Origin: a virus
Virus record (IMG/VR): IMGVR_UViG_3300037882_000169
Location: 1 to 28,130 of that record
DNA length: 28,130 nucleotides
Strand: one strand, 5' to 3'
Part shown: in pieces, positions 2,286 to 18,860 of the stretch
Position numbering within the stretch: the stretch's first letter is position 1
Layout: every line of letters begins with the position of its first letter
The notes under the pieces: model-generated
Database searches by the model: none
What the model was told of the DNA's origin: nothing
The model's input: only the letters and a program-made list of their open reading frames with translations
Made by a program: the position numbers and the translations under genes

Positions 2286-3860
2286 ATGAAACCGTTTAAC
2301 ATTAGAAAGTTATTGGAGTTAGATTTTAACATTCCAAATCTCCACCCTGACTTTAGATTCACAGAAGGAACACGTACTAATTGGGATGGACGTGAGTATA
2401 CTGTCGTATCCCTAGAAGTAAAAACAGATAGAATTCGTACTAAAGCAGAAGCTAATGGGCTTAGTCTACATGGTAAAGACTGGCTTATGATCTCTACATT
2501 CAGTAAACGTACAGGTAAAGAAATAGACAATGGTATGCACATAGGTAAATGGGCTGGTCTCCTTACTCGAGAGACCTGGAATACAAATGGATCATTCCTT
2601 GATGGACTGTACTACCTAAGTAATCCTCCAACATTACGCTTACTAAATGGTAAACTACGTAAAGGTATCTACAAAGAAGTAGCTAGACGTGTGCGTTCTA
2701 AACACCTATACACAAGTACATATACAGAACTATTACTTGACACTGTCATTGCAGAAACTAAACGTCTTAATCCAACGTTTACTAATGCAGAAATTATTTC
2801 TTATCTAAAAACTAACTATGGTATTTTAGACTTAAAGGTTTGTTTCTTATCAAATAAAATTGTAATAGTTAGACTAGCTACCTCTGGTACCTTTGGTGGT
2901 AACCATGAACATTATTACTATGACTTAAAACCTACAGATTATGGATACCGTGAAGAACGTGTAAAACATGTAGGTTATACTTGGATTCATGAATCACAAG
3001 TTATGTATCGTGGTCGTGCTTACAATCGTGACTCATTAGTCATGCAACACTGTCCAGAATGTAATCAAGAAGCACCAGCCGAGGGCTTCGAGGATGGTAT
3101 ATGCTGGAACTGTGTAGACAATCGATACAAGATTCACAACTACTCAACTAAAGTTCCTTCATTACTTAGGTTCAAAGCTAAGAATGTTAAACCAAGTACA
3201 CTGTACTTAGGTATCGAACTTGAGTATGAAACAACTGATAAAGATAAAGCTCGTGTCAAAGTTGGTAAACAACTAGCTGGTCATGCTATTATGAAATCAG
3301 ATGGTTCAATTCACAATGGCTTTGAGATTGTTACATGTCCTGCAACACTAGACATCCACATGGAGGAGTTCAAGAAATTCTATAATAATCTTCCTGGTGA
3401 GTTGTTTGCTGCATCCAACACAGGTATGCATGTACATGTCAGTCGTAAACCATTAAATCTATTCACAATTGGTAAGATGACTGAGTTCCTTAACCGACTT
3501 GACAACAAAGATTTCATTGCACATATTGCTGGTCGTATTGACAATAGTTATGCTCGTCAAGATAATCAACGGACTATCAGTTACCCATTAGTCAATCGTC
3601 ACAGTGGGACTGCTAGATACAATGCATTAAACTTGTCACCAACAGATACTATCGAGTTCCGTATCTTTAGTACACCAACTAACTGGGAACAGTTTGCATC
3701 ACGTCTAGAGTTCTGTCAAGCACTAACTGACTATTGTCAACCAGCTCAAGTAGGCACAAGCCTCAAGCACTTGACACATCACTCATCATTTATTAACTGG
3801 ATGCAGTCACATCGCAAAGACTATCCAGAGCTATCAAATCACTTGAAAGGATTCGCATAA
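2286..3860 (+). CDS. Putative amidoligase (GS-like COOH-NH2 ligase)
   Basis: The C-terminal half (about residues 300-500) has the motifs of the amidoligase_2 family, glutamine-synthetase-like enzymes that join a carboxylate to an amine using ATP. Visible are GIELEYE (ExE metal ligands), KSDGSI followed by GFEIVT, HVHVS, and YNALNL followed by TIEFRIFS. Before it is a zinc-finger-like CPEC...CWNC element (about residues 256-275). The first 250 residues are unassigned and may bind the substrate. A ribosome binding site (AGAGGA) precedes the ATG. It ends in TAATG overlap with the amidotransferase gene, and an ATP-grasp ligase follows two genes later. Family is clear; the substrate is not known. 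Confidence 0.85.
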   Translation: MKPFNIRKLLELDFNIPNLHPDFRFTEGTRTNWDGREYTVVSLEVKTDRIRTKAEANGLSLHGKDWLMISTFSKRTGKEIDNGMHIGKWAGLLTRETWNTNGSFLDGLYYLSNPPTLRLLNGKLRKGIYKEVARRVRSKHLYTSTYTELLLDTVIAETKRLNPTFTNAEIISYLKTNYGILDLKVCFLSNKIVIVRLATSGTFGGNHEHYYYDLKPTDYGYREERVKHVGYTWIHESQVMYRGRAYNRDSLVMQHCPECNQEAPAEGFEDGICWNCVDNRYKIHNYSTKVPSLLRFKAKNVKPSTLYLGIELEYETTDKDKARVKVGKQLAGHAIMKSDGSIHNGFEIVTCPATLDIHMEEFKKFYNNLPGELFAASNTGMHVHVSRKPLNLFTIGKMTEFLNRLDNKDFIAHIAGRIDNSYARQDNQRTISYPLVNRHSGTARYNALNLSPTDTIEFRIFSTPTNWEQFASRLEFCQALTDYCQPAQVGTSLKHLTHHSSFINWMQSHRKDYPELSNHLKGFA

Positions 3861-4738
3861 TGTGTATCGCTATTTATAAACCAGAAGGTAAAGAGATTGA
3901 ACGTGAAACACTTGAGCGTTGCTATGATTCAAATCCTGATGGTGCTGGTTATATGTTCCATAAGAATGACAAACTCTATGTTAAGAAAGGTTTCTTTTCT
4001 TTCTCAGAGTTCTGGCAATCGTATCGTCGGGATCGTACTAAAGAATGTGTAATTCATTTTAGGATTAAAACTCATGGTCAGATCAATAAAGATAATTGCC
4101 ACCCTTATTTGGTTAATGATAAGTTCGCATTTGTACATAATGGTGTCATCAGTGGTTATACTGATAATAATAAATCAGATACTTGGTTGTTCAATGAAGA
4201 TGTAATCCAACCATTCGTCAACAAGTGGGGTAACTTAGGTCTGTTCGAGGACCCGGTTAAAAAACTTATCGAGTCTCGTATTGGTTATAGTAAGCTAATT
4301 TTCATGGACAATACAGGCAATACTAAGATTTTCAACGAAGATAAAGGTTACTGGGATGACGATGTATGGTATTCAAACACAAGTTATAGAAAGCCTGTAC
4401 CTGTTGTACCAAAACCAAATCCACCAGCTACATTTGGATCTAACTGGACTAGTTACTACAACAACAAAGATTGGGAACATAAGAAAAAACATATGACTAT
4501 CGGTGAAATTGTAACTCTTAGCTGGGGTCATTATGATCGTGACTTAAAGAAATCTCATGCTCGTGATTCTATTTGGGAAATCGTAGCAGTCAACAAAGAT
4601 TATTCAGTTGACTTAATGAATGATGACTCTGAGTTTATTTACAACATTAAGTTCAGTGACATTGACATCTGGGAAGAACCAGATCCAGTAGGTAATTCAT
4701 GGCAACCAAAGGGAGGATGGGATTATGACTCGTACTGA
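3860..4738 (+). CDS. Class II glutamine amidotransferase-like (Ntn hydrolase)
   Basis: Begins MCIAIYKP, placing Cys2 at the mature N-terminus, the nucleophile of class II (Ntn) glutamine amidotransferases. Further family motifs are HFRIKTHGQ (glutamine-binding Arg), NCHPYL and FAFVHNGVI (the HNG oxyanion motif). The domain covers about residues 1-165. The rest is a linker and a basic/aromatic tail (about 200-292) that may be a small SH3-like domain. Such enzymes release ammonia from glutamine or cut related amides. Translation is coupled to the upstream amidoligase through TAATG, so the two probably act in one pathway. The acceptor is unknown. Confidence 0.85.
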   Translation: MCIAIYKPEGKEIERETLERCYDSNPDGAGYMFHKNDKLYVKKGFFSFSEFWQSYRRDRTKECVIHFRIKTHGQINKDNCHPYLVNDKFAFVHNGVISGYTDNNKSDTWLFNEDVIQPFVNKWGNLGLFEDPVKKLIESRIGYSKLIFMDNTGNTKIFNEDKGYWDDDVWYSNTSYRKPVPVVPKPNPPATFGSNWTSYYNNKDWEHKKKHMTIGEIVTLSWGHYDRDLKKSHARDSIWEIVAVNKDYSVDLMNDDSEFIYNIKFSDIDIWEEPDPVGNSWQPKGGWDYDSY

Positions 4739-5054
4739 TTTTAAAAAGGGTGATATAATCACTGTTATTAAACCAAGTAATACTCTTGAAGGTCCAACAT
4801 GGAATGAAAGTGATACAATGGGAAACATGGACTACTTAACAGAAGGTACACATGAAATACATAGCGTAGATAATTACATTACTGTGTATGATAAACGTAT
4901 TCAACAATACTGGTCATTAGATCGTAGATGGTGTACACTAGTTAATGATATAAGTGTTAGTAGAAACAGTCCATACTTTAATGTTATACGTAAAAGTAAA
5001 CAACTTAACGAACGCTTTGTAAACAGAAAGAAAGGAACTGAGTATGCGTTTTAA
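4725..5054 (+). CDS. SH3-like small protein, paralogue A (109 aa)
   Basis: Starts MTRTDFKKGDIITVI, the F-x-x-G-D opening of a small beta-barrel (SH3/KOW-like). The C-terminus has a helical module (FNVIRKSKQLNERFVNRK) related to the modules ending the 110-aa protein at 5044 and the 114-aa protein at 6867. It overlaps the amidotransferase end by 14 bases; GGGAGG lies upstream. The last codons (EYAF) overlap the start of the next gene. It sits inside the amidoligase/ATP-grasp cluster and could bind the substrate or an enzyme, but this is unproven. Confidence 0.8.
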   Translation: MTRTDFKKGDIITVIKPSNTLEGPTWNESDTMGNMDYLTEGTHEIHSVDNYITVYDKRIQQYWSLDRRWCTLVNDISVSRNSPYFNVIRKSKQLNERFVNRKKGTEYAF

Positions 5055-5376
5055 ATCTGGAGATATACTTATTTATAATCCTACTAATGAAACAACAGCT
5101 GCTAATAATATGATTAAACCTGGAATGCGTTGTCAAGTAATGTTTGATAATGACACTTATAACTTAGAATTTGATGAGTATATTGGAGGACATTCAGGAT
5201 ATAATGGTCAAGGAAAATTTGGACATTGCTGGTGGATCCCACTTTCAACAGTAGAACGTTGCTTTGAATTAGCTTCTGAATATACAGGTAAAACATATTC
5301 AGGTAAATACGCTAAAGTCTTAGCTAAAATTAATCAACTTGAATCTAAAAGAAAGGATAAAGGTTATGCGTTTTAA
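5044..5376 (+). CDS. SH3-like small protein, paralogue B (110 aa)
   Basis: Starts MRFKSGDILIYNP, again a G-D beta-barrel opening, and ends in the module KYAKVLAKINQLESKRK followed by GYAF. It matches its neighbours at 4725 and 6867 best in this C-terminal helix. AAAGGA lies 8 bases before the ATG. The stop is read through the start of the ATP-grasp gene (ATGCGTTTTAA), and the same overlap sequence joins this gene to the previous one, pointing to a tandem duplication. Function unknown. Confidence 0.8.
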   Translation: MRFKSGDILIYNPTNETTAANNMIKPGMRCQVMFDNDTYNLEFDEYIGGHSGYNGQGKFGHCWWIPLSTVERCFELASEYTGKTYSGKYAKVLAKINQLESKRKDKGYAF

Positions 5377-6118
5377 AGTCTTTCCATACAAACTAGGCTC
5401 TCAGTCTGCTAAAGCATTAGCTCATGGGCTTAATGTACTACGTGTTAAGCCTACGTATGATGCACGTAGACGTGATGTTATTATTAACTGGGGTAACAGT
5501 AGACCTAGTGCTATACTACAAGCCTCTCATGATTTAAACTCACATGGGGCAATCGCACTTGCTTGTAACAAACTCAAAACATTTAACAAACTAAATGGGC
5601 TGGGATTTGAACATATACCTGACTATACTATCCATCCAGAAGAAGCTACTGCTTGGTTACAAGAAGGTAACAAAGTATATTGTCGAACGTCCTTGACAGG
5701 ACACAGTGGTAATGGTATAGTAATCATAGAACCTGATGGGCATCTAATCAATGCACCATTGTATACTAAAGCAACCAAACATAAATACGAATTCCGTGTT
5801 CATGTATTTAAAGGAAAGGTTATAGATGTACAACAAAAGAAACGACGTAATGATTATACTGGTCCCAATACTGGCATTCGTAATCATTCCAATGGTTATA
5901 TATATGCAAGGGTAGACATCGATGTTCCACCTCTATTACTATCGTCGTCTATTCAAGCGGTTGATTTGCTTGGTCTTGATTTTGGTGCTGTTGATGTGGG
6001 CTATCGTGAGCGTGATTCCCGTGTGTTTATATTTGAAGTTAACACAGCTCCTGGGTTAGTTAATACAACGTTAAATAAATATGTTAATACTTTTAAGGAG
6101 TACTTAAATGACATCTAA
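5366..6118 (+). CDS. ATP-grasp family ligase
   Basis: Predicted ATP-grasp fold enzyme of 250 residues, forming an amide (peptide-like) bond through an acyl-phosphate. Motifs: YCRTSLTGHSGNGIVII (ATP-binding loop), YEFRVHVFKGKVIDVQQKKR (central strands) and LGLDFGAVDVGY with FIFEVNTAPGL (Asp and Glu/Asn magnesium ligands). I chose ATG 5366, preceded by GAAAGGATAAAGG, over the upstream ATG at 5339, which lacks a site; this also gives the same MRFK start as the preceding gene. It completes a set of amidoligase, amidotransferase and ATP-grasp enzymes. It may add amino acids to a peptide or to a cell-wall part, but the substrate is unknown. Confidence 0.85.
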   Translation: MRFKVFPYKLGSQSAKALAHGLNVLRVKPTYDARRRDVIINWGNSRPSAILQASHDLNSHGAIALACNKLKTFNKLNGLGFEHIPDYTIHPEEATAWLQEGNKVYCRTSLTGHSGNGIVIIEPDGHLINAPLYTKATKHKYEFRVHVFKGKVIDVQQKKRRNDYTGPNTGIRNHSNGYIYARVDIDVPPLLLSSSIQAVDLLGLDFGAVDVGYRERDSRVFIFEVNTAPGLVNTTLNKYVNTFKEYLNDI

Positions 6119-7616: not shown

Positions 7617-8306
7617 ATGGGCTTTATCCAACACACTGCGTGTCCTAAATGTGGTAGCAAAGACAATCTCGGTGAGTACACCGACAATTGGTACTGCTTT
7701 GGCTGTGGTTATTACAAACTAAAAAACGATCTAGCATCCGTCCGTAGACGGATAGATAACGTCGTCGCTAAAGACGACAATGACATATCGCTAACGGTTA
7801 GTAATGACATACCAAAACAAGCCATGCAATGGCTACTGTCCTACGGACTCATGGGCTCTGACGTAAGTGAGCACTCATGGGGGTGGGTAGAAGACCGTAG
7901 TCTGTTGGTCCTAGTAAACACACCAACCTACTGGCAAGCAAGGAACTTTGGTCCTGGAGTTAAGTATCTTAGCAAGGGAAACAAACCCTTGCTTTCCTAT
8001 GGGAATGGTGGTACAATAGTATGTGTCGAAGATGTTTTAAGTGCAGTAAAAGTTAGCAAAGCTAACAAAGATGTAACTGCTGTACCACTCCTTGGTTCTA
8101 GTGTGTCACCTGAACTTGAGGAAACCCTGTTTAAACAAGCCAATGATGTGATCCTATGGCTCGATAGGGATAAGGCAACAAGTGCTGTTAAACAAGCGAG
8201 AAGTATGCTTGGTAAAGGCATTAGGTGTTCCGTGCTGGTAACGGAATTAGATCCTAAAGAATACTCAGTTAAGGAAATTAACGAATGGTTGAGAAACAAA
8301 TTATAA
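7617..8306 (+). CDS. DNA primase (zinc ribbon + TOPRIM)
   Basis: 229 residues from ATG 7617, chosen because GGAG lies 7 bases upstream and because residue 1 is followed at once by the zinc ribbon CPKC...CFGC (Cys 9, 12, 27, 30). The TOPRIM core has the catalytic Glu in IVCVEDVLSA and the acidic pair in ILWLDRDKA. This matches the N-terminal half of T7 gp4; here primase and helicase are separate genes. It makes RNA primers for lagging-strand synthesis. It overlaps the helicase by 22 bases, so their translation is probably coupled. Confidence 0.88.
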   Translation: MGFIQHTACPKCGSKDNLGEYTDNWYCFGCGYYKLKNDLASVRRRIDNVVAKDDNDISLTVSNDIPKQAMQWLLSYGLMGSDVSEHSWGWVEDRSLLVLVNTPTYWQARNFGPGVKYLSKGNKPLLSYGNGGTIVCVEDVLSAVKVSKANKDVTAVPLLGSSVSPELEETLFKQANDVILWLDRDKATSAVKQARSMLGKGIRCSVLVTELDPKEYSVKEINEWLRNKL

Positions 8307-9526
8307 AACTTTTCTGTGAAGATAAAGAACTCTTTACAAAGTATTATAAATATGTTAATATTAATTATATTAAAACTAATTATAATAATATATATAAAAT
8401 ATTTAATAGTATTAATAATTATTATATTAAATATAATATAAATAATAATATTAATATAAATGATTTAGATATTTTTTATAATACTGAATACATGTTAAAA
8501 GAACAAGAAAGGAAAGAACTTAAACTACTGTTAGAAGAAGTGTTTAACCAAGACATTACTAATCGAGATGCGTTAATCGGGTTACTAGATGAGCATCGTC
8601 ACCGAGCCATCGCAGGCGAGGTAGCATTAGTATCGTTAGATGTAGAGACTGGTAAAAAACCAGTCCAAGACTTGTTAGAATTGTTTAACAAGTTTGAACA
8701 ACAAGAGATGGAACTTGACGTACCTAAACCTATTGAAATGGATTTGGAAAAACTATATGATTCTCAGGTTGCTACTCCTGGCTTACGCTGGCGTGTTAAT
8801 TGGCTTAATCAAGCTCTCGGATCTCTGCGCAAAGGGGACTTTGGCTTTATATTTGCCAGACCAGAAACAGGCAAGACTACTTTTCTGGCGTCGGAAATTA
8901 CTCACATGGTCTCTCAGACTGAGGGAGAAGTACTATGGTTTAACAATGAGGAACAAGGAAACAAAGTAGCTATCCGCTGCTATCAAGCAGCACTGGGTTT
9001 ACCACAAGAGTTTCTCTTTGATAACAGAGAGCGACGACAACGTGAGTATGTACATGCAACTGGTAACCGTATTAAGATTCTAGACTTTGAAGATTCAAAC
9101 AACAAACTACGAATCGAAAACATTCTTAAAACAAGTAACCCAGCATTAATTATCTTCGATCAGATTGACAAGATCAAAGGGTTTAAAGGAGAACGAAATG
9201 ATTTGGAACTCAAAGCAATCTACCAATGGGCCCGTGAAATTGCTAAAACATATGCACCTGTTATTGCTGTTTCGCAAGCAAGTGGTGAGGCAGAAGGTAA
9301 ACTCTATCTTACAATGGACATGGTAGATGGTTCAAAGACTGCAAAGCAAGGTGAAGCAGATTGGATTCTAGGCATTGGTAAAGAACAAGATAACACATCA
9401 CGTACTAGGTTCTTTAACATTGTTAAGAATAAACTAATTGGTGATTCAGATACACTGCCAGACTTACGGCATGGTTCTGTTCAAGTCCTAATCAAACCAG
9501 AGATCGCACGCTATGAAGATATTTGA
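8285..9526 (+). CDS. Replicative DNA helicase (DnaB/T7 gp4-like)
   Basis: RecA-fold helicase of 413 residues. Walker A is ARPETGKTT (about 191-199), Walker B is PALIIFDQID (about 286-295), and IAVSQASGE follows as the arginine-finger/H3 side. It unwinds the phage fork, working with the primase encoded just upstream. Oddity: residues about 20-66 are almost only Asn, Ile, Tyr and Lys, encoded by DNA of nearly pure A/T at 8342-8483. This low-complexity N-terminus is unlike the rest of the gene and of the family. The start overlaps the primase end; AACGA with weak purines precedes the ATG. Confidence 0.88.
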   Translation: MVEKQIIKLFCEDKELFTKYYKYVNINYIKTNYNNIYKIFNSINNYYIKYNINNNININDLDIFYNTEYMLKEQERKELKLLLEEVFNQDITNRDALIGLLDEHRHRAIAGEVALVSLDVETGKKPVQDLLELFNKFEQQEMELDVPKPIEMDLEKLYDSQVATPGLRWRVNWLNQALGSLRKGDFGFIFARPETGKTTFLASEITHMVSQTEGEVLWFNNEEQGNKVAIRCYQAALGLPQEFLFDNRERRQREYVHATGNRIKILDFEDSNNKLRIENILKTSNPALIIFDQIDKIKGFKGERNDLELKAIYQWAREIAKTYAPVIAVSQASGEAEGKLYLTMDMVDGSKTAKQGEADWILGIGKEQDNTSRTRFFNIVKNKLIGDSDTLPDLRHGSVQVLIKPEIARYEDI

Positions 9527-9638: not shown

Positions 9639-9756
9639 TTTGACACGTGAAGATATCTATGATATAATTGATAGTGTTAGTGCTGGTGAAACACTAGAAG
9701 AAACAGTAGAGAAATTCTACCCATTGAATAAGGCGGTCGGAGAATGCGGGAGCTAA
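9607..9756 (+). CDS. Hypothetical acidic protein, 49 aa
   Basis: Starts MIDKILQDRPDLTREDIYDIID, a helical, acidic small protein. GGAGAAAAG precedes the ATG. It ends 13 bases inside the DNA polymerase gene. May be a small helical accessory factor; not recognised. Confidence 0.55.
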   Translation: MIDKILQDRPDLTREDIYDIIDSVSAGETLEETVEKFYPLNKAVGECGS

Positions 9757-10904
9757 TCTTAGATGTTGAAACAACTATATCAAACAAAGGTAATCCCTTT
9801 GATGAAAGCAACAAGCTCTGCTACGTGGGAACTTATGACGGTATGGCTTATGGTCTTCATAACATTGAGTATGATTCTGAGCCTTATGGTAGCCATCTCG
9901 CTAACGTGCAAACTACTGTGGATGCTTGTGACTTAATTATTGGGTTTAATATTAAATTTGATTTGCATTGGATACGACGTTATGGAATTTCTTTTAGCAA
10001 CAAGCGTATATGGGATTGTCAGCTTGTGCATTTTATACTTACTGGACAAACAGCCAGCTACCCCTCCCTCAATGGAGTTGCTGCTTATTACGATCTGGGT
10101 AGTAAGCTTGATGTGGTTAGTACAGAGTATTGGAAGAATGGTATAGATACACCAGACATACCAGAAGATATCCTTACAGAGTATTTACAAGGTGACTTAG
10201 ACCTAACGTATCAAGTGTATCTTAAACAACGTAAGGAACTAAATAAAGCAAGCCCACAACTACGTAGGTTAGTTAGCCTACATAACCAAGACTTGCTAGT
10301 GTTACAGGAGATGGAGTATAATGGACTGGTATTTGATGAAGCTAAATGTACAGAGCTGGGTGAAGAGCTTACAGTACAGATTAAAAGACTCGATGATATA
10401 CTGTATGACTATCATCAAACTGATGGCTTCAACAGTAATTCTACTGAGCACCTCTCTGCTTTACTTTATGGTGGGACTATTGTTTTTAAGCGCAGAGAAG
10501 TTATTGGTGTATTCAAGACGGGTACTAGAGCTGGTCAAGATAAGGAAAGGTGGGTAGACTATCCAATTGTGTTCGAGAAGATTGTCAATCCAATTAAAGG
10601 TTCTGAGCTGGCTAAGGAAGGTTTTTACAGCACAGATGAACAAACACTTAAGTCTCTTAAAGGAAGTAAGAAAGCTAAAGAGTTAGTTGAATTGCTATTA
10701 CGCAGAGCAACTCTAGAGAAACGACTATCTACTTACTATGAAGGACTAGTTAAATTAAGAAAGGAAATGAAATGGAATGAAGGAAAACTACACGGACAGC
10801 TTAACCAATGTGTGGCTAGAACAGGTCGACTTAGTTCAAGCAGACCTAACTTACAGAACTTTGATGGTGAAATTAAAGAACTATTCAGGAGCAGATATGA
10901 CTAA
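9744..10904 (+). CDS. DNA polymerase family A, N-terminal part (exonuclease + thumb)
   Basis: 386 residues carrying the 3'-5' proofreading domain: LILDVETT (Exo I, Asp7 and Glu9), GFNIKFDLHW (Exo II), and YLQGDLDLTY (Exo III). This is followed by the thumb and the start of the polymerase fold (RTGRLSSSRPNLQNF). It stops at FRSRYD, which in complete family A enzymes lies just before motif A; the remainder is in a separate gene at 11024. The two would form one active enzyme by association. The stop overlaps the ATG of a 53-codon ORF (10897). GGAG occurs before the start. Confidence 0.9.
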   Translation: MRELILDVETTISNKGNPFDESNKLCYVGTYDGMAYGLHNIEYDSEPYGSHLANVQTTVDACDLIIGFNIKFDLHWIRRYGISFSNKRIWDCQLVHFILTGQTASYPSLNGVAAYYDLGSKLDVVSTEYWKNGIDTPDIPEDILTEYLQGDLDLTYQVYLKQRKELNKASPQLRRLVSLHNQDLLVLQEMEYNGLVFDEAKCTELGEELTVQIKRLDDILYDYHQTDGFNSNSTEHLSALLYGGTIVFKRREVIGVFKTGTRAGQDKERWVDYPIVFEKIVNPIKGSELAKEGFYSTDEQTLKSLKGSKKAKELVELLLRRATLEKRLSTYYEGLVKLRKEMKWNEGKLHGQLNQCVARTGRLSSSRPNLQNFDGEIKELFRSRYD

Positions 10905-11058
10905 AGAATTAAATGATGTGTATGGTAAAACAGATTTAGATTATGTAAATGAGTTCAATGAGTTTGATGCAGAGCCTGCATATATACAAGCTAAAGTAAA
11001 TGAATGTCAGAAGGAGTGCAACAATGAGCTTAATACAGGCGGATGCCAAGGCTCTTGA
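10897..11058 (+). CDS. ORF between the polymerase halves, 53 aa
   Basis: Starts MTKELNDVYGKTDLD and ends in a Cys-containing tail. AGGAG precedes the ATG by 6 bases. It overlaps the end of the N-terminal polymerase gene (8 bases) and the start of the C-terminal one (35 bases), and is in a different frame from both. It is acidic and helical, with four Cys near the end. It may be the trace of the inserted DNA that split the polymerase, or a peptide that helps the halves associate. Unknown. Confidence 0.55.
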   Translation: MTKELNDVYGKTDLDYVNEFNEFDAEPAYIQAKVNECQKECNNELNTGGCQGS

Positions 11059-11743
11059 GTGGGTATGTGCTACATTTCTAAGTCAAGATCAAACAGCTAT
11101 CAAGGAGATATGGGATAATGTCGACCAACACACAGACAACCAAGAGCGGTTTGGTTTACCAAGTAGACTCATTGCTAAAACGTTCGTATTCCGTCTTATC
11201 TACGGAGGATCTGCATACTCTTATGCTAATGATCCTAACTTTAAAGACATTGGCGGAGAACAGTTCTGGGACGGAGTCATTGGAGAGTTCTATCGTAAAT
11301 ACGATGGGCTTAGTAAGTGGCATACAACAATTGTCGAGCAAGCTAAACGAGATAGAAAACTCACTATGCCCACAGGCCGTGTGTACAACTATGAACCAGA
11401 AGTTAGCTATGGAAAAGTCAAGTGGCCTAGGACAAAGATCCTCAACTACCCTGTACAAGGGCTTGGAGCGGACCTCATGTCCATCGCACGAGTCAGCTTG
11501 GCAAACAGACTTAAAGGAGTGAGTGGAGTAAAACTAATTAATACTGTACATGATTCAATTATTCTTGACATTGATGACAAGATATGCGATAATATACGTA
11601 TAGTTCAATTAGTTGATAAATGTTTTACAGATGTACCAGCAAACTTTGAGAAACTCTTTGGAGTTAAATTTAATCTCCCAATGCGGGTCGAATGTCAAGT
11701 CGGTCCTAACTGGGGAAACATGGAGGTAGTAAATGCTAATTAA
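11024..11743 (+). CDS. DNA polymerase family A, C-terminal part (palm/fingers)
   Basis: 239 residues from ATG 11024, preceded by AGAAGGAG 7 bases upstream. It opens with motif A, LIQADAKALEW (catalytic Asp). Next is motif B, RLIAKTFVFRLIYGG (the Lys and Tyr of the O helix), then motif C, NTVHDSIILDI (catalytic Asp). Together with the 9744 gene it makes a full T7/PolI-type polymerase: joined, FRSRY and LIQAD would be only a few residues apart, as in unsplit enzymes. It overlaps the SSB gene by 11 bases. Confidence 0.9.
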   Translation: MSLIQADAKALEWVCATFLSQDQTAIKEIWDNVDQHTDNQERFGLPSRLIAKTFVFRLIYGGSAYSYANDPNFKDIGGEQFWDGVIGEFYRKYDGLSKWHTTIVEQAKRDRKLTMPTGRVYNYEPEVSYGKVKWPRTKILNYPVQGLGADLMSIARVSLANRLKGVSGVKLINTVHDSIILDIDDKICDNIRIVQLVDKCFTDVPANFEKLFGVKFNLPMRVECQVGPNWGNMEVVNAN

Positions 11744-15820: not shown

Positions 15821-15965
15821 AAAACTAGCAGAACAGTATGATGAAGTAACTCTACTAGAGATTCTGAATATTAATTCATTTGATTTAGTAGAGGCTTTCT
15901 TTGATCGTATTGAAGATAAATACGAATACTTTAATAATGAGTTGACAACAGACGAGGATTACTAA
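15792..15965 (+). CDS. Small conserved phage protein, 57 aa
   Basis: Starts MTLTLQEITKKLAEQYDEV and continues LLEILNINSFDLVEAFFDRIEDKYEYF. Short proteins of this type, often with ITKKL...DE..LLE.L and DLV..F.D.IE, are widespread in podoviruses and myoviruses (from memory), with no known role. It overlaps the spanin gene by 29 bases and its stop TAA shares the A of the next ATG. Confidence 0.7.
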   Translation: MTLTLQEITKKLAEQYDEVTLLEILNINSFDLVEAFFDRIEDKYEYFNNELTTDEDY

Positions 15966-17845
15966 TGGCTTTAACAGATTACCAACGGTTTATTCATGCC
16001 AGCCGTTATGCACGATGGGTTCCTAGTGAATCTAGACGTGAGACATGGGAAGAAACAGTAAGTCGTTATACAGGATTCTTTAAAGGACGCTTTGATAGTT
16101 TCCCTGAAGAGAAGGTTAATAAAGCAATCCGTGAACTAGATGTAATGCCTAGTATGCGTTGCTTAATGACAGCAGGACAAGCTTTAGATCGTGATGAGAT
16201 TGCAGGTTACAACTGTAGCTTTATTGCTATTGATAACCCTAAAGCTTTTGATGAAGTAATGTACGTTTTAATGTGTGGTACAGGTGTAGGGTTCTCAGTA
16301 GAGCGACAGTTTACAAACATGTTACCAGTAGTTGCTGAGGAATTCCATGATACAGACACATCTATTAGAGTTAAAGATTCAAGAATTGGTTGGGCATCTG
16401 CTTATAGGGAACTCATTAGCCTCCTATATTCAGGGAGAGTTCCAAAATGGGATACCTCTGGAGTGCGACCTGCTGGAGCTAGACTCAGGACTTTCGGTGG
16501 TAGAGCAAGCGGTCCAAAACCTCTTGAAGACTTGTTTGAATTTACAATACATACTTTCAAACGAGCTGCAGGAAGAAAACTAAACTCATTGGAATGTCAT
16601 GATATTGTATGTAAAGTTGCAGACATTGTTATTGTCGGGGGTGTTCGACGAAGTGCTCTTATTTCTTTGTCTAATCTCACAGATGATCGCATGCGTAATG
16701 CTAAGAATGGTGCCTGGTGGGATGGTAATGTCCAACGTGCTCTTGCTAATAATAGTGTTGCTTACACTGAGAAACCTGATGTTGGTATTTTCTTAAAAGA
16801 GTGGAGTACATTATATGACTCAAAGAACGGTGAACGAGGAATATTTAATAGAGTTGCAGCTACAAAGAAAGCAGCCTCTAACGGAAGACGAGATGTTGAT
16901 GGTTTCGACTATGGCACAAACCCTTGCGGAGAAATTATCCTGCGATCTAAGGGAGTGTGTAATCTCAGTGAAGTTGTCATCCGAGAGAAAGATACCCTTG
17001 CTGACCTTAAAGAAAAGATTGAAGTCGCAACAATTATCGGGACATTTCAATCCACCCTTACAAACTTTAGATACTTAAGAGCTGAGTGGAAGAAGAACCA
17101 AGAGGAAGAACGGTTACTAGGTGTAAGTATGACAGGTATTATGGATCATCCTATCCTTAGTAAACCTACTGAAGAATGTATTAAATGGTTAACGGAGCTA
17201 CGTGAATATGCAATTGAAGTCAATAAAAAGTGGGCTGGTGTACTCGGCATACCTGAGTCTGTCGCTATCACTACTGTTAAGCCTTCAGGGACTGTTAGTC
17301 AGTTGGTTGGTTGCAGTTCTGGCATTCATCCTGCTTACTCTAAACATTACATTAGAACTGTGCGAATGGATAATAAAGATCCAATCACAAAATTCTTTAA
17401 AGATGCAGGAGTTCCAAATGAACCAGACGTTACAAAACCAAACGACATTACAATCTTTAGTTTCCCGCAACAAGGAAGCCAATCAGGAGTAACTCGTAAT
17501 GAAACAAATGCCTTAGAACAACTTAAACTATATAGTGTATATCAGAAGCATTGGACAGAGCATAATCCGTCAATCACTGTTTACTATACAGATAACGAGT
17601 TCATGGATGTAGGAGCTTGGATTTATAATAACTTCAGTGATGTGTCAGGTGTATCCTTACTACCACATTCTGATCACGTTTATAAGCAAGCACCATATCA
17701 AGAAGTAACAGAGGAAGTATATAACGAAGCTGTTAGAACTTTCCCTGAGGTAGACTGGTCAAACTTTAAAGAGGAGGAAGATACTACAACAGGAACCCAG
17801 GAATTAAGTTGTACTGCTGGTGTTTGTGAAGTGGTAGGTCTATAA
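15965..17845 (+). CDS. nrdJ: Adenosylcobalamin-dependent ribonucleotide reductase (class II)
   Basis: 626 residues. Class II reductases make deoxynucleotides using B12 and no oxygen or second subunit. Visible: GYNCSF (Cys84), NPCGE (Cys321, Glu323; thiyl radical site) and Cys332, 11 residues later, the same spacing as Cys408 and Cys419 of the Lactobacillus enzyme. The C-terminal CTAGVC pair (Cys616 and Cys621) reduces the active site and is also spaced as there. Monomeric class, slightly shorter than the 739-residue Lactobacillus protein. It supplies dNTPs for phage DNA. GACGAGG precedes the ATG, and the stop overlaps the next ATG. Confidence 0.93.
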   Translation: MALTDYQRFIHASRYARWVPSESRRETWEETVSRYTGFFKGRFDSFPEEKVNKAIRELDVMPSMRCLMTAGQALDRDEIAGYNCSFIAIDNPKAFDEVMYVLMCGTGVGFSVERQFTNMLPVVAEEFHDTDTSIRVKDSRIGWASAYRELISLLYSGRVPKWDTSGVRPAGARLRTFGGRASGPKPLEDLFEFTIHTFKRAAGRKLNSLECHDIVCKVADIVIVGGVRRSALISLSNLTDDRMRNAKNGAWWDGNVQRALANNSVAYTEKPDVGIFLKEWSTLYDSKNGERGIFNRVAATKKAASNGRRDVDGFDYGTNPCGEIILRSKGVCNLSEVVIREKDTLADLKEKIEVATIIGTFQSTLTNFRYLRAEWKKNQEEERLLGVSMTGIMDHPILSKPTEECIKWLTELREYAIEVNKKWAGVLGIPESVAITTVKPSGTVSQLVGCSSGIHPAYSKHYIRTVRMDNKDPITKFFKDAGVPNEPDVTKPNDITIFSFPQQGSQSGVTRNETNALEQLKLYSVYQKHWTEHNPSITVYYTDNEFMDVGAWIYNNFSDVSGVSLLPHSDHVYKQAPYQEVTEEVYNEAVRTFPEVDWSNFKEEEDTTTGTQELSCTAGVCEVVGL

Positions 17846-18205: not shown

Positions 18206-18240
18206 AAAAAAGGGGACTGAATATTGTCCCCTTTCTTTTA
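18206..18240. terminator. Bidirectional terminator between convergent blocks
   Basis: AAAAAAGGGGAC, an 8-base TGAATATT loop, and GTCCCCTTTC with further T residues form a 9-bp stem with an A-run on the left and a T-run on the right. It ends + strand transcription after 18170 and - strand transcription after the pqqA-like gene at 18290. Confidence 0.92.
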
Positions 18241-18289: not shown

Positions 18290-18361
18290 CTATTTATTCA
18301 TTACATACATAGTAACTTCAAAGCCAAAACGCATTTCAGTAGCTGATGGTGTAGTCCACAT
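18290..18361 (-). CDS. pqqA: PqqA-like PQQ precursor peptide, 23 aa
   Basis: 23 residues, beginning MWTTPSATEM and ending in GFEVTMYVMNK. Glu15 and Tyr19, separated by three residues in EVTMY, are the two residues that PqqE and later enzymes fuse into pyrroloquinoline quinone. Length, the MW-x-x-P start and the basic end match PqqA of Klebsiella and other bacteria. AAAGGA lies 7 bases upstream. No pqqB, C, D or E is in the window, so host enzymes would have to process it. PQQ is the cofactor of methanol and glucose dehydrogenases. It has its own promoter (18407-18435), a start-site palindrome and a terminator. Too short for standard ORF callers. Confidence 0.9.
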   Translation of the reverse strand: MWTTPSATEMRFGFEVTMYVMNK

Positions 18362-18381
18362 GGTAATATCCTTTAAAAATG

Positions 18382-18399
18382 TAGTACGAATTTGTACTA
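18382..18399. promoter_or_regulatory. Palindrome at the pqqA transcription start
   Basis: TAGTAC, 6 bases, GTACTA: a perfect inverted repeat lying just past the -10 box, where the transcript should begin (about 18400). It is either an operator for a repressor or a 5' hairpin that protects the short mRNA. It lies about 20 bases upstream of the ATG. Confidence 0.6.
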
Positions 18400-18406
18400 A
18401 GCATAT

Positions 18407-18435
18407 ATTATATCACATGTCAAGCATTCTGTCAT
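18407..18435 (-). promoter_or_regulatory. sigma70-type promoter of pqqA
   Basis: On the - strand, ATGACA (18435-18430; 5 of 6 to the -35 consensus) and TATAAT (18412-18407) are separated by 17 bases. TG-A directly before TATAAT gives an extended -10. It would start transcription at about 18400, 39 bases before the pqqA start codon. The TTGACA nearby at 18424-18419 is too close to this -10 to serve as its -35. Confidence 0.75.
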
Positions 18436-18446
18436 CAGTATAATCA

Positions 18447-18860
18447 TTAAAATGTTTTACCTGCTTGAAAGTCTGCAAGAGTTAAACCACCTGTGTACTG
18501 ACAATGGGCTAGCTCTTTAAACTTAACCCAACGTCCAGCCCACTCAAGTCCTACTTGTTCTGCAATCTCTCCACACTGTGTAAATAAAGCAGTATCACTC
18601 CACATAGCCTTACCATTAACAATAGGTACAAAGTCAAAAGCACACTTCCAATTATGAAAAGATTGACCGCCTTTGGCGTTGGTTACTTTTTTTCCTGGAG
18701 TAGTACGTCCTTGTGCATATAAAGCATTCTGACTTGCAGCATCTCTGTAAGTAGAAGTAATAAGTACATCAATACCCTTAGCCTTACATCGGTTTATAAA
18801 CTCACTAGCTAATGTTGCAACTTTAGGATTAAGATCTGAAAGACTTCTAGAGTTAATCAT
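18447..18860 (-). CDS. Peptidoglycan endopeptidase endolysin (M15 type)
   Basis: 137 residues with the M15C L-alanyl-D-glutamate peptidase motifs: TSTYRDAASQNALYAQGRT, SFHNWKCAFDF (zinc His and Asp) and the late KELAHCQYTGG (zinc His). This cuts the peptide stems of the cell wall at lysis, as in phage T5 endolysin. No signal peptide, so a holin is needed; none is obvious in the window. The gene overlaps the 74-residue gene by 8 bases and is last of the virion/lysis block; pqqA lies just beyond. Confidence 0.9.
   Translation of the reverse strand: MINSRSLSDLNPKVATLASEFINRCKAKGIDVLITSTYRDAASQNALYAQGRTTPGKKVTNAKGGQSFHNWKCAFDFVPIVNGKAMWSDTALFTQCGEIAEQVGLEWAGRWVKFKELAHCQYTGGLTLADFQAGKTF

What the first reader, a model, noticed from the sequence alone, without database searches (positions are those of the whole stretch)
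18290..18435. Phage-encoded PqqA-like peptide on its own transcript
A 23-codon - strand gene encodes a peptide with Glu15-x-x-x-Tyr19 (GFEVTMY), the exact residues from which PQQ is made, and an MW-x-x-P start, as in bacterial PqqA. It has a ribosome binding site, an extended -10 promoter, a start-site palindrome and a terminator. It sits next to lysis genes without other pqq genes. The simplest idea is an auxiliary metabolic gene that floods the host PqqE/PqqD pathway with precursor to raise PQQ-dependent methanol or glucose oxidation during infection. It is easily missed because of its size. I do not recall a phage pqqA being described, but could not check.
Basis: partly seen in the sequence, partly recalled or inferred. 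Interest (0 to 1): 0.93.

Follow-up and report, generated by a model that had tools for sequence, protein, structure and literature searches.

The report
Stand-alone pqqA gene in methylotroph phages

Summary
The 23-codon gene at 18290-18361 (-) is a genuine pqqA: it passes Pfam PF08042 and the NCBIfam equivalog TIGR02107 at about twice their cut-offs. It has a near-consensus promoter, a start-site hairpin, a ribosome binding site and a terminator that a sister virus keeps with paired changes. The peptide is of the Methylophilaceae type, and the window's closest isolated relatives are OM43 phages MEP401 and MEP402.

The gene occurs in all nine methylophage isolate records found here (P19250A, Venkman, MEP301, MEP401, MEP402, four Melnitz). 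None is labelled pqqA. It is in 10 of 11 long records of the window's lineage and in at least 120 IMG/VR stretches. It is under strong purifying selection (dN/dS 0.06-0.09), with Glu15 and Tyr19 invariant. PqqE was not found in the viral records searched.

Best explanation: the phage supplies the one component of PQQ synthesis that is consumed molecule for molecule, while host enzymes do the rest, sustaining PQQ-dependent methanol oxidation. This function is inferred, not shown.

Phage pqqA was reported once, in a Lake Baikal virus that also carries methanol dehydrogenase; that paper said P19250A lacks it, but P19250A has it. New here: a nearly universal, stand-alone, overlooked cassette in unrelated methylophages.

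The parts
18290..18361 (-). pqqA, 23 codons plus stop: MWTTPSATEMRFGFEVTMYVMNK
   Evidence: PF08042 41.3 bits; TIGR02107 38.5 bits
18305..18319 (-). Codons Glu15-Val-Thr-Met-Tyr19, the pair from which PQQ is made
   Evidence: from the translation; Glu15 and Tyr19 invariant in 130 distinct viral pqqA sequences
18369..18374 (-). Shine-Dalgarno AAAGGA
   Evidence: sequence; an SD-like motif precedes 157 of 157 viral pqqA
18382..18399 (-). Start-site inverted repeat TAGTACAAATTCGTACTA, a predicted hairpin at the 5' end of the mRNA
   Evidence: hairpins of different sequence at about the same place in 25 of 28 lineage members with an exact TATAAT
18407..18435 (-). sigma-70-type promoter ATGACA-17-TATAAT with extended -10 (TGATATAAT)
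   Evidence: 11 of 12 matches; exact TATAAT upstream of 62 of 141 distinct viral pqqA against 18 +/- 3.3 in shuffles
18209..18234 (-). Intrinsic terminator, stem GGGGAC/GTCCCC with T tail, probably bidirectional between convergent clusters
   Evidence: fold; sister virus has the paired change GGCCAC/GTGGCC; not listed by the simple scan
18447..18860 (-). Endolysin, VanY/M15 peptidase, immediately upstream of pqqA on the same strand
   Evidence: phrog_2649 E=4e-32; PF02557
18000..18170 (+). 56-aa ORF ending the rightward cluster, convergent with pqqA
   Evidence: no family match; aligned in the sister virus
15965..17845 (+). Ribonucleotide reductase, lineage marker
   Evidence: phrog_367 E=1e-180
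8285..9526 (+). DnaB-like helicase used to place the virus among MEP401/MEP402-type OM43 phages

Best explanation
The window is a fragment of a phage of the MEP401-type replication lineage that most likely infects Methylophilaceae methylotrophs. It carries an autonomous pqqA cassette: promoter, 5' hairpin, RBS, 23-codon ORF, terminator. The phage-made PqqA would be bound by host PqqD, cross-linked at Glu15-Tyr19 by host PqqE, and finished by host protease, PqqB and PqqC into PQQ for the host's methanol dehydrogenase. PqqA is the only pathway component consumed one molecule per PQQ, while the other Pqq proteins are reusable enzymes. A phage that shuts off host transcription would therefore need to carry only this gene to keep PQQ, and with it methanol oxidation, going until lysis. 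Shown here: the gene, its family, its expression signals, its conservation, its distribution and the absence of PqqE from the viral records. Inferred: expression, processing by host enzymes, raised or maintained PQQ, and benefit to the phage.
For: Family models passed. The same motif in bacterial genomes falls almost only in Methylophilaceae. The closest isolate helicases are MEP401 and MEP402, OM43 phages, at 66%. All nine methylophage isolate records found carry pqqA, while among 503 helicase relatives in the collection only MEP401 and MEP402 are on the pqqA list. In the lineage, 30 of 39 records and 10 of 11 records of at least 40 kb have it, one with two copies. dN/dS is 0.056 in the lineage and 0.089 over 130 distinct viral genes. 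PqqE is absent from all 39 viral records and present in both host genomes; pqqB-E are absent from all viral loci held and present in host loci. Hosts keep 1-12 pqqA copies, 100 of 100 genomes, but one copy of pqqBCDE in most genomes described (PMC4109929). PqqA protein is about 20-fold above PqqC or PqqE in Klebsiella (PMC2294125). One large virus, G047, carries pqqA together with a PQQ-type methanol dehydrogenase.
Against: No transcript, peptide or PQQ measurement exists here. Hosts already have several pqqA copies, so extra supply may not be limiting. In M. extorquens a pqqA mutant still makes 10-20% of PQQ (PMC2294125). Pathway overexpression studies do not single out pqqA as the sole bottleneck (PMC9851590 and PMC7936290). 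Lineage member G024 lacks pqqA at the equivalent site, so the gene is not indispensable. In the Venkman group only 4 of 6 records of at least 30 kb have it.
Confidence: 0.72

Rival explanations
1. The phage peptide is a decoy: it occupies PqqD/PqqE or the protease and limits PQQ synthesis or another host process, rather than feeding it.
For: The gene comes without its enzymes and from a strong promoter, as a competitor would.
Against: A decoy need not keep the reacting pair, yet Glu15 and Tyr19 are kept and the peptide is the same as or close to host PqqA. Methanol dehydrogenase on a pqqA-bearing phage argues for promotion.
Confidence: 0.08
2. PQQ made from the phage peptide serves something other than methanol oxidation, such as radical protection during infection or another quinoprotein.
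For: PQQ has other uses in bacteria (general knowledge). The gene is not physically tied to a dehydrogenase in most viral records.
Against: Distribution follows methylotroph hosts. In 50,697 phage records the real matches are methylophages plus one unassigned virus, although phages of PQQ users such as Pseudomonas are plentiful among relatives.
Confidence: 0.12
3. A passenger: the small host gene is picked up often by recombination and has no use to the phage.
For: Hosts are rich in pqqA copies. The gene sits in many different neighbourhoods, 92 distinct neighbour pairs in 138 contexts. Two viral genes are identical in DNA to ones in bacterial assemblies.
Against: dN/dS 0.06-0.09, promoter and terminator kept, a lineage-wide presence and a second copy in one virus. 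The nearest pqqA of a viral one is more often viral than host, 88 against 19, with 23 ties.
Confidence: 0.05
4. The short transcript acts as an RNA (antisense or regulatory), the peptide being secondary.
For: Hairpin at the start site and strong terminator; whole-transcript fold z = -3.9.
Against: Stem sequences vary while the peptide is kept; synonymous differences are plentiful, pS 0.57. The fold z-score probably owes much to the terminator.
Confidence: 0.03

Closest known systems
Bacterial PqqA (PF08042, TIGR02107), Methylophilaceae form
   Same: Length 23 aa, W-x-x-P start, E-x-x-x-Y core, above both curated cut-offs; the window peptide is identical to peptides in three bacterial-assembly loci (L161, L166 and L238; L238 looks like a phage contig)
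   Different: Encoded by a phage, alone, beside an endolysin, with its own promoter and terminator; no pqqBCDE
Lake Baikal virus population VP_266 (PMC7678222)
   Same: Phage of Methylophilaceae with pqqA, interpreted there as support of methanol oxidation
   Different: T4-like virus that also encodes methanol dehydrogenase; the window is a different lineage with pqqA alone. The Baikal paper states that P19250A has none of these genes, but P19250A carries pqqA at 28085-28153 (-)
OM43 phages MEP401 and MEP402 (PMC10580990)
   Same: Replication module, RNR, phosphoesterase, split DNA polymerase; both carry pqqA
   Different: pqqA is unannotated there and lies upstream of a leftward structural/tail cluster, not beside an endolysin; the virion genes differ
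Component-replacing AMGs such as cyanophage psbA (general knowledge)
   Different: psbA encodes a protein that is damaged; pqqA encodes a peptide that is converted into a cofactor

Membership tests
PqqA precursor peptide (PF08042 / TIGR02107) | Score above the curated cut-off of the family models | tested here: met
   41.3 against 21.1 bits and 38.5 against 20 bits
PqqA precursor peptide (PF08042 / TIGR02107) | Glu-x-x-x-Tyr cross-link pair | tested here: met
   Glu15 and Tyr19 present
PqqA precursor peptide (PF08042 / TIGR02107) | Coexists with PqqB, C, D and E in the cell | tested here: inconclusive
   Not in the virus; PqqE found in both OM43-type host genomes searched. The window's own host is inferred, not known
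PqqA precursor peptide (PF08042 / TIGR02107) | Binds PqqD and is cross-linked by PqqE to give PQQ | not testable with these tools
   needs biochemistry
Phage auxiliary metabolic gene | Host-type metabolic gene in a genuine phage genome | tested here: met
   Phage genes around it; complete isolate genomes carry it
Phage auxiliary metabolic gene | Kept by selection in phages | tested here: met
   dN/dS 0.056-0.089; 10 of 11 long lineage records
Phage auxiliary metabolic gene | Expressed in infection and changes host metabolism | not testable with these tools
   no transcriptome or metabolite data
MEP401-type OM43 phages (Zobellviridae) | MEP401-type DNA replication module | tested here: met
   blastn matches over the helicase, polymerase, phosphoesterase and RNR region; helicase 66%
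MEP401-type OM43 phages (Zobellviridae) | MEP401-type morphogenesis and packaging module (group I) | tested here: not met
   No blastn match between the window's 18-28 kb half and MEP401; it resembles the group II pattern of PMC10580990, so it is not filed as group I

The most novel reading that the evidence does not exclude
pqqA is a near-core gene of methylophages as a whole, gained or exchanged repeatedly by unrelated phage lineages as a self-contained cassette. It is then a distinct kind of AMG that encodes no enzyme but the consumable precursor peptide of a peptide-derived cofactor, which would mean that PQQ supply limits phage production in methylotrophs.
Probability: 0.6. Interest if true: 0.8.

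Novelty: new variant of a known kind. Interest (0 to 1): 0.72.

Why it matters
Methylophilaceae of the OM43 and LD28 groups are abundant consumers of methanol and other one-carbon compounds in sea and lake water. If almost all their phages carry the consumable precursor of PQQ, then viral infection may directly sustain one-carbon oxidation, and a sequence-defined, testable bottleneck of phage growth is known. It also shows a blind spot: the 23-codon gene is not labelled in any isolate genome found here, and one paper states that P19250A lacks it. Gene callers that stop at about 30 codons will miss other precursor-peptide AMGs. Several virus-host pairs in culture already allow the test.

Tried and rejected
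Two 'Acinetobacter phage' hits look like mis-deposited bacterial contigs; the one opened has pqqA-pqqBCDE and served only as a source of pqqB-E queries. The start-site palindrome as a repeated phage operator was rejected: no second site in the window. A long pairing between coding region and 3' UTR in the fold was not pursued, since the flank differs in relatives. MAFFT of the 5' UTRs puts two stem registers out of line, so no formal covariation count is claimed. Single linkage of neighbourhoods merges most viruses into one group by chaining, so independent lineages are judged from named isolates only. A scan with the window's 1323-aa virion protein found only the one sister. Melnitz relatives in IMG/VR are short fragments and gave no denominator. 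Named methylophages not examined: Venkman EXVC038S, HIM624-A (partial), phiMB624-A, MEP431-434.

Full report
Observation. The minus-strand ORF 18361-18290 encodes MWTTPSATEMRFGFEVTMYVMNK. It scores 41.3 bits with Pfam PqqA (cut-off 21.1) and 38.5 bits with the NCBIfam equivalog TIGR02107 (cut-off 20). The promoter ATGACA-17-TATAAT with an extended -10 matches 11 of 12 positions. An 18-base inverted repeat lies where transcription should start, and it occurs nowhere else in the window. An SD sequence precedes the ATG. A GC-rich stem with a T tail follows the gene and folds as a terminator, although the simple scan did not list it. In the sister virus IMGVR_UViG_3300011115_000265 the gene, palindrome, -10 and site are kept, and the terminator stem changes on both sides (GGGGAC/GTCCCC to GGCCAC/GTGGCC), which keeps the pairing.

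Surroundings. The window is an IMG/VR virus record. The right half is leftward: M15 endolysin, tail or spike protein, a 1323-aa protein with a transglycosylase-like domain, and a DNA-ejection-like protein. The left half is rightward: replication genes, RNR, phosphoesterase. pqqA sits on the minus strand, at the meeting point, just after the endolysin. The replication half aligns with OM43 phage MEP401, the virion half does not. The helicase is closest to MEP401 and MEP402, 66%. This matches the group II pattern described in PMC10580990, a MEP401-type replication module with other virion genes. The host is therefore probably a Methylophilaceae methylotroph; this is an inference.

Distribution. 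In 50,697 phage records, pqqA-like matches are nine methylophage isolate records (P19250A, Venkman, MEP301, MEP401, MEP402 and four Melnitz), one Manatee Spring virus, and two apparently mis-deposited bacterial contigs. None of the phage genes is annotated as pqqA; in the Melnitz record opened and in the Manatee Spring virus a hypothetical protein is called on the opposite strand. Other helicase relatives (503 records: Pseudomonas, Pectobacterium, Vibrio and others) do not appear on the pqqA list. In IMG/VR at least 120 stretches match a PqqA pattern. Of 39 helicase-related records of the window's lineage 30 carry pqqA, 10 of 11 among those of at least 40 kb, and the sister has two. The exception among the long ones, G024, keeps the neighbouring rightward genes but has a different gene in place of the endolysin and no pqqA there. 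In the Venkman capsid group 4 of 6 records of at least 30 kb have it. The motif in bacterial genomes falls almost only in Methylophilaceae.

Selection and form. Over 130 distinct viral genes dN/dS is 0.089, in the lineage 0.056. W2, P5, R11, G13, F14, E15, V16, T17 and Y19 are invariant, with the caveat that the search pattern itself fixed most of these except F14; the lineage records found through the helicase and the family model are free of that pattern bias at the search stage, but were read out with it. An SD-like motif precedes 157 of 157 genes. An exact TATAAT lies upstream of 62 of 141 distinct upstream regions against 18 +/- 3.3 in shuffles. In the lineage, 25 of 28 genes with an exact TATAAT have a 5-11 bp stem close to the inferred start site, built from several different stem sequences; single tests are weak because the region is AT-rich, so this is suggestive only. 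A hairpin there could stabilise a short mRNA (inference).

Context of the pathway. PqqE was not found above cut-off in any of 39 viral records but was in both host genomes; tblastn found no pqqB, C, D or E in any viral locus held. All 100 Methylophilaceae genomes sampled have pqqA, 1 to 12 copies, agreeing with PMC4109929 (3-12 copies of pqqA against one of the other pqq genes in most genomes). In Klebsiella PqqA protein is about 20-fold above PqqC or PqqE, and changing Glu to Asp or Tyr to Phe abolishes PQQ in Acinetobacter (PMC2294125). PqqA is consumed once per PQQ, the enzymes are not. So a phage needs only pqqA to keep PQQ synthesis alive after host shut-off. That step is reasoning, not data.

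Supporting case. The 72-kb virus record G047 carries pqqA, a 624-aa PQQ-type methanol dehydrogenase, a 946-aa molybdopterin oxidoreductase resembling formate dehydrogenase, and a SoxY-SoxZ fusion. Phage-like RNR, a groEL-like chaperonin matching a phage family and an ATP DNA ligase support a large phage, but no capsid or terminase was seen in the proteins tested, so its viral nature rests on these and on the IMG/VR call.

Known or new. Phage pqqA was reported once, in Baikal population VP_266, with methanol dehydrogenase (PMC7678222). A second paper lists pqqA among virus-encoded phosphorus-cycling genes of reservoir sediments without detail (PMC13188868). The Baikal paper says P19250A has none of these genes; P19250A has pqqA at 28085-28153 (-), 95.7% identical to the window's peptide. 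The isolate papers that could be searched (MEP301, MEP401/402, Venkman, Melnitz) do not mention a phage pqqA. New here are the near-universality in methylophages, the stand-alone cassette and the presence in unrelated phage groups. Function remains to be shown.

Noticed in passing
L529:1990-10790 (IMGVR_UViG_3300025120_009955, 72 kb): Large virus record with pqqA plus a full-length PQQ methanol dehydrogenase (WDYDG, XoxF-like by recall), a 946-aa formate-dehydrogenase-like molybdoprotein and a SoxYZ fusion: much of a methanol oxidation route on one phage. The formate-dehydrogenase-like gene is not mentioned in the section on methylotroph viruses of the Baikal paper.
   Followed up: partly
L250:5327-5411 and L329:14626-15661 (IMGVR_UViG_3300011115_000265): The window's sister virus has two pqqA genes, the second upstream of the helicase on the opposite strand.
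   Followed up: partly
L296:9352-9802 and onward: Syntenic site without pqqA, where the M15 endolysin gene is also replaced by another gene; endolysin and pqqA may be exchanged together.
   Followed up: partly
L012, L021, L026, L032, L033, L036, L089: Viral contigs with PqqA peptides not of the Methylophilaceae type (for example [23 protein letters not shown]), suggesting pqqA also in phages of other PQQ producers, or host contamination.
   Followed up: no
9744-11743: DNA polymerase A split into two ORFs, as in MEP401 (split polymerases are known for group I, PMC10580990).
   Followed up: no
2286-6118: Amidoligase, class II glutamine amidotransferase-like protein and a weakly ATP-grasp-like protein in a cluster; peptide or cell-wall modification of unknown purpose.
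   Followed up: no
L007:5001-5066: In phage Melnitz pqqA lies just before a tRNA-Leu gene, with a hypothetical ORF annotated on the opposite strand.
   Followed up: no
CAKLQF020000010.1 and CAKLQH020000055.1: Records named Acinetobacter phage MD-2021a: the first holds a bacterial pqqABCDE region and looks like a bacterial contig; the second has the same pqqA match.
   Followed up: partly
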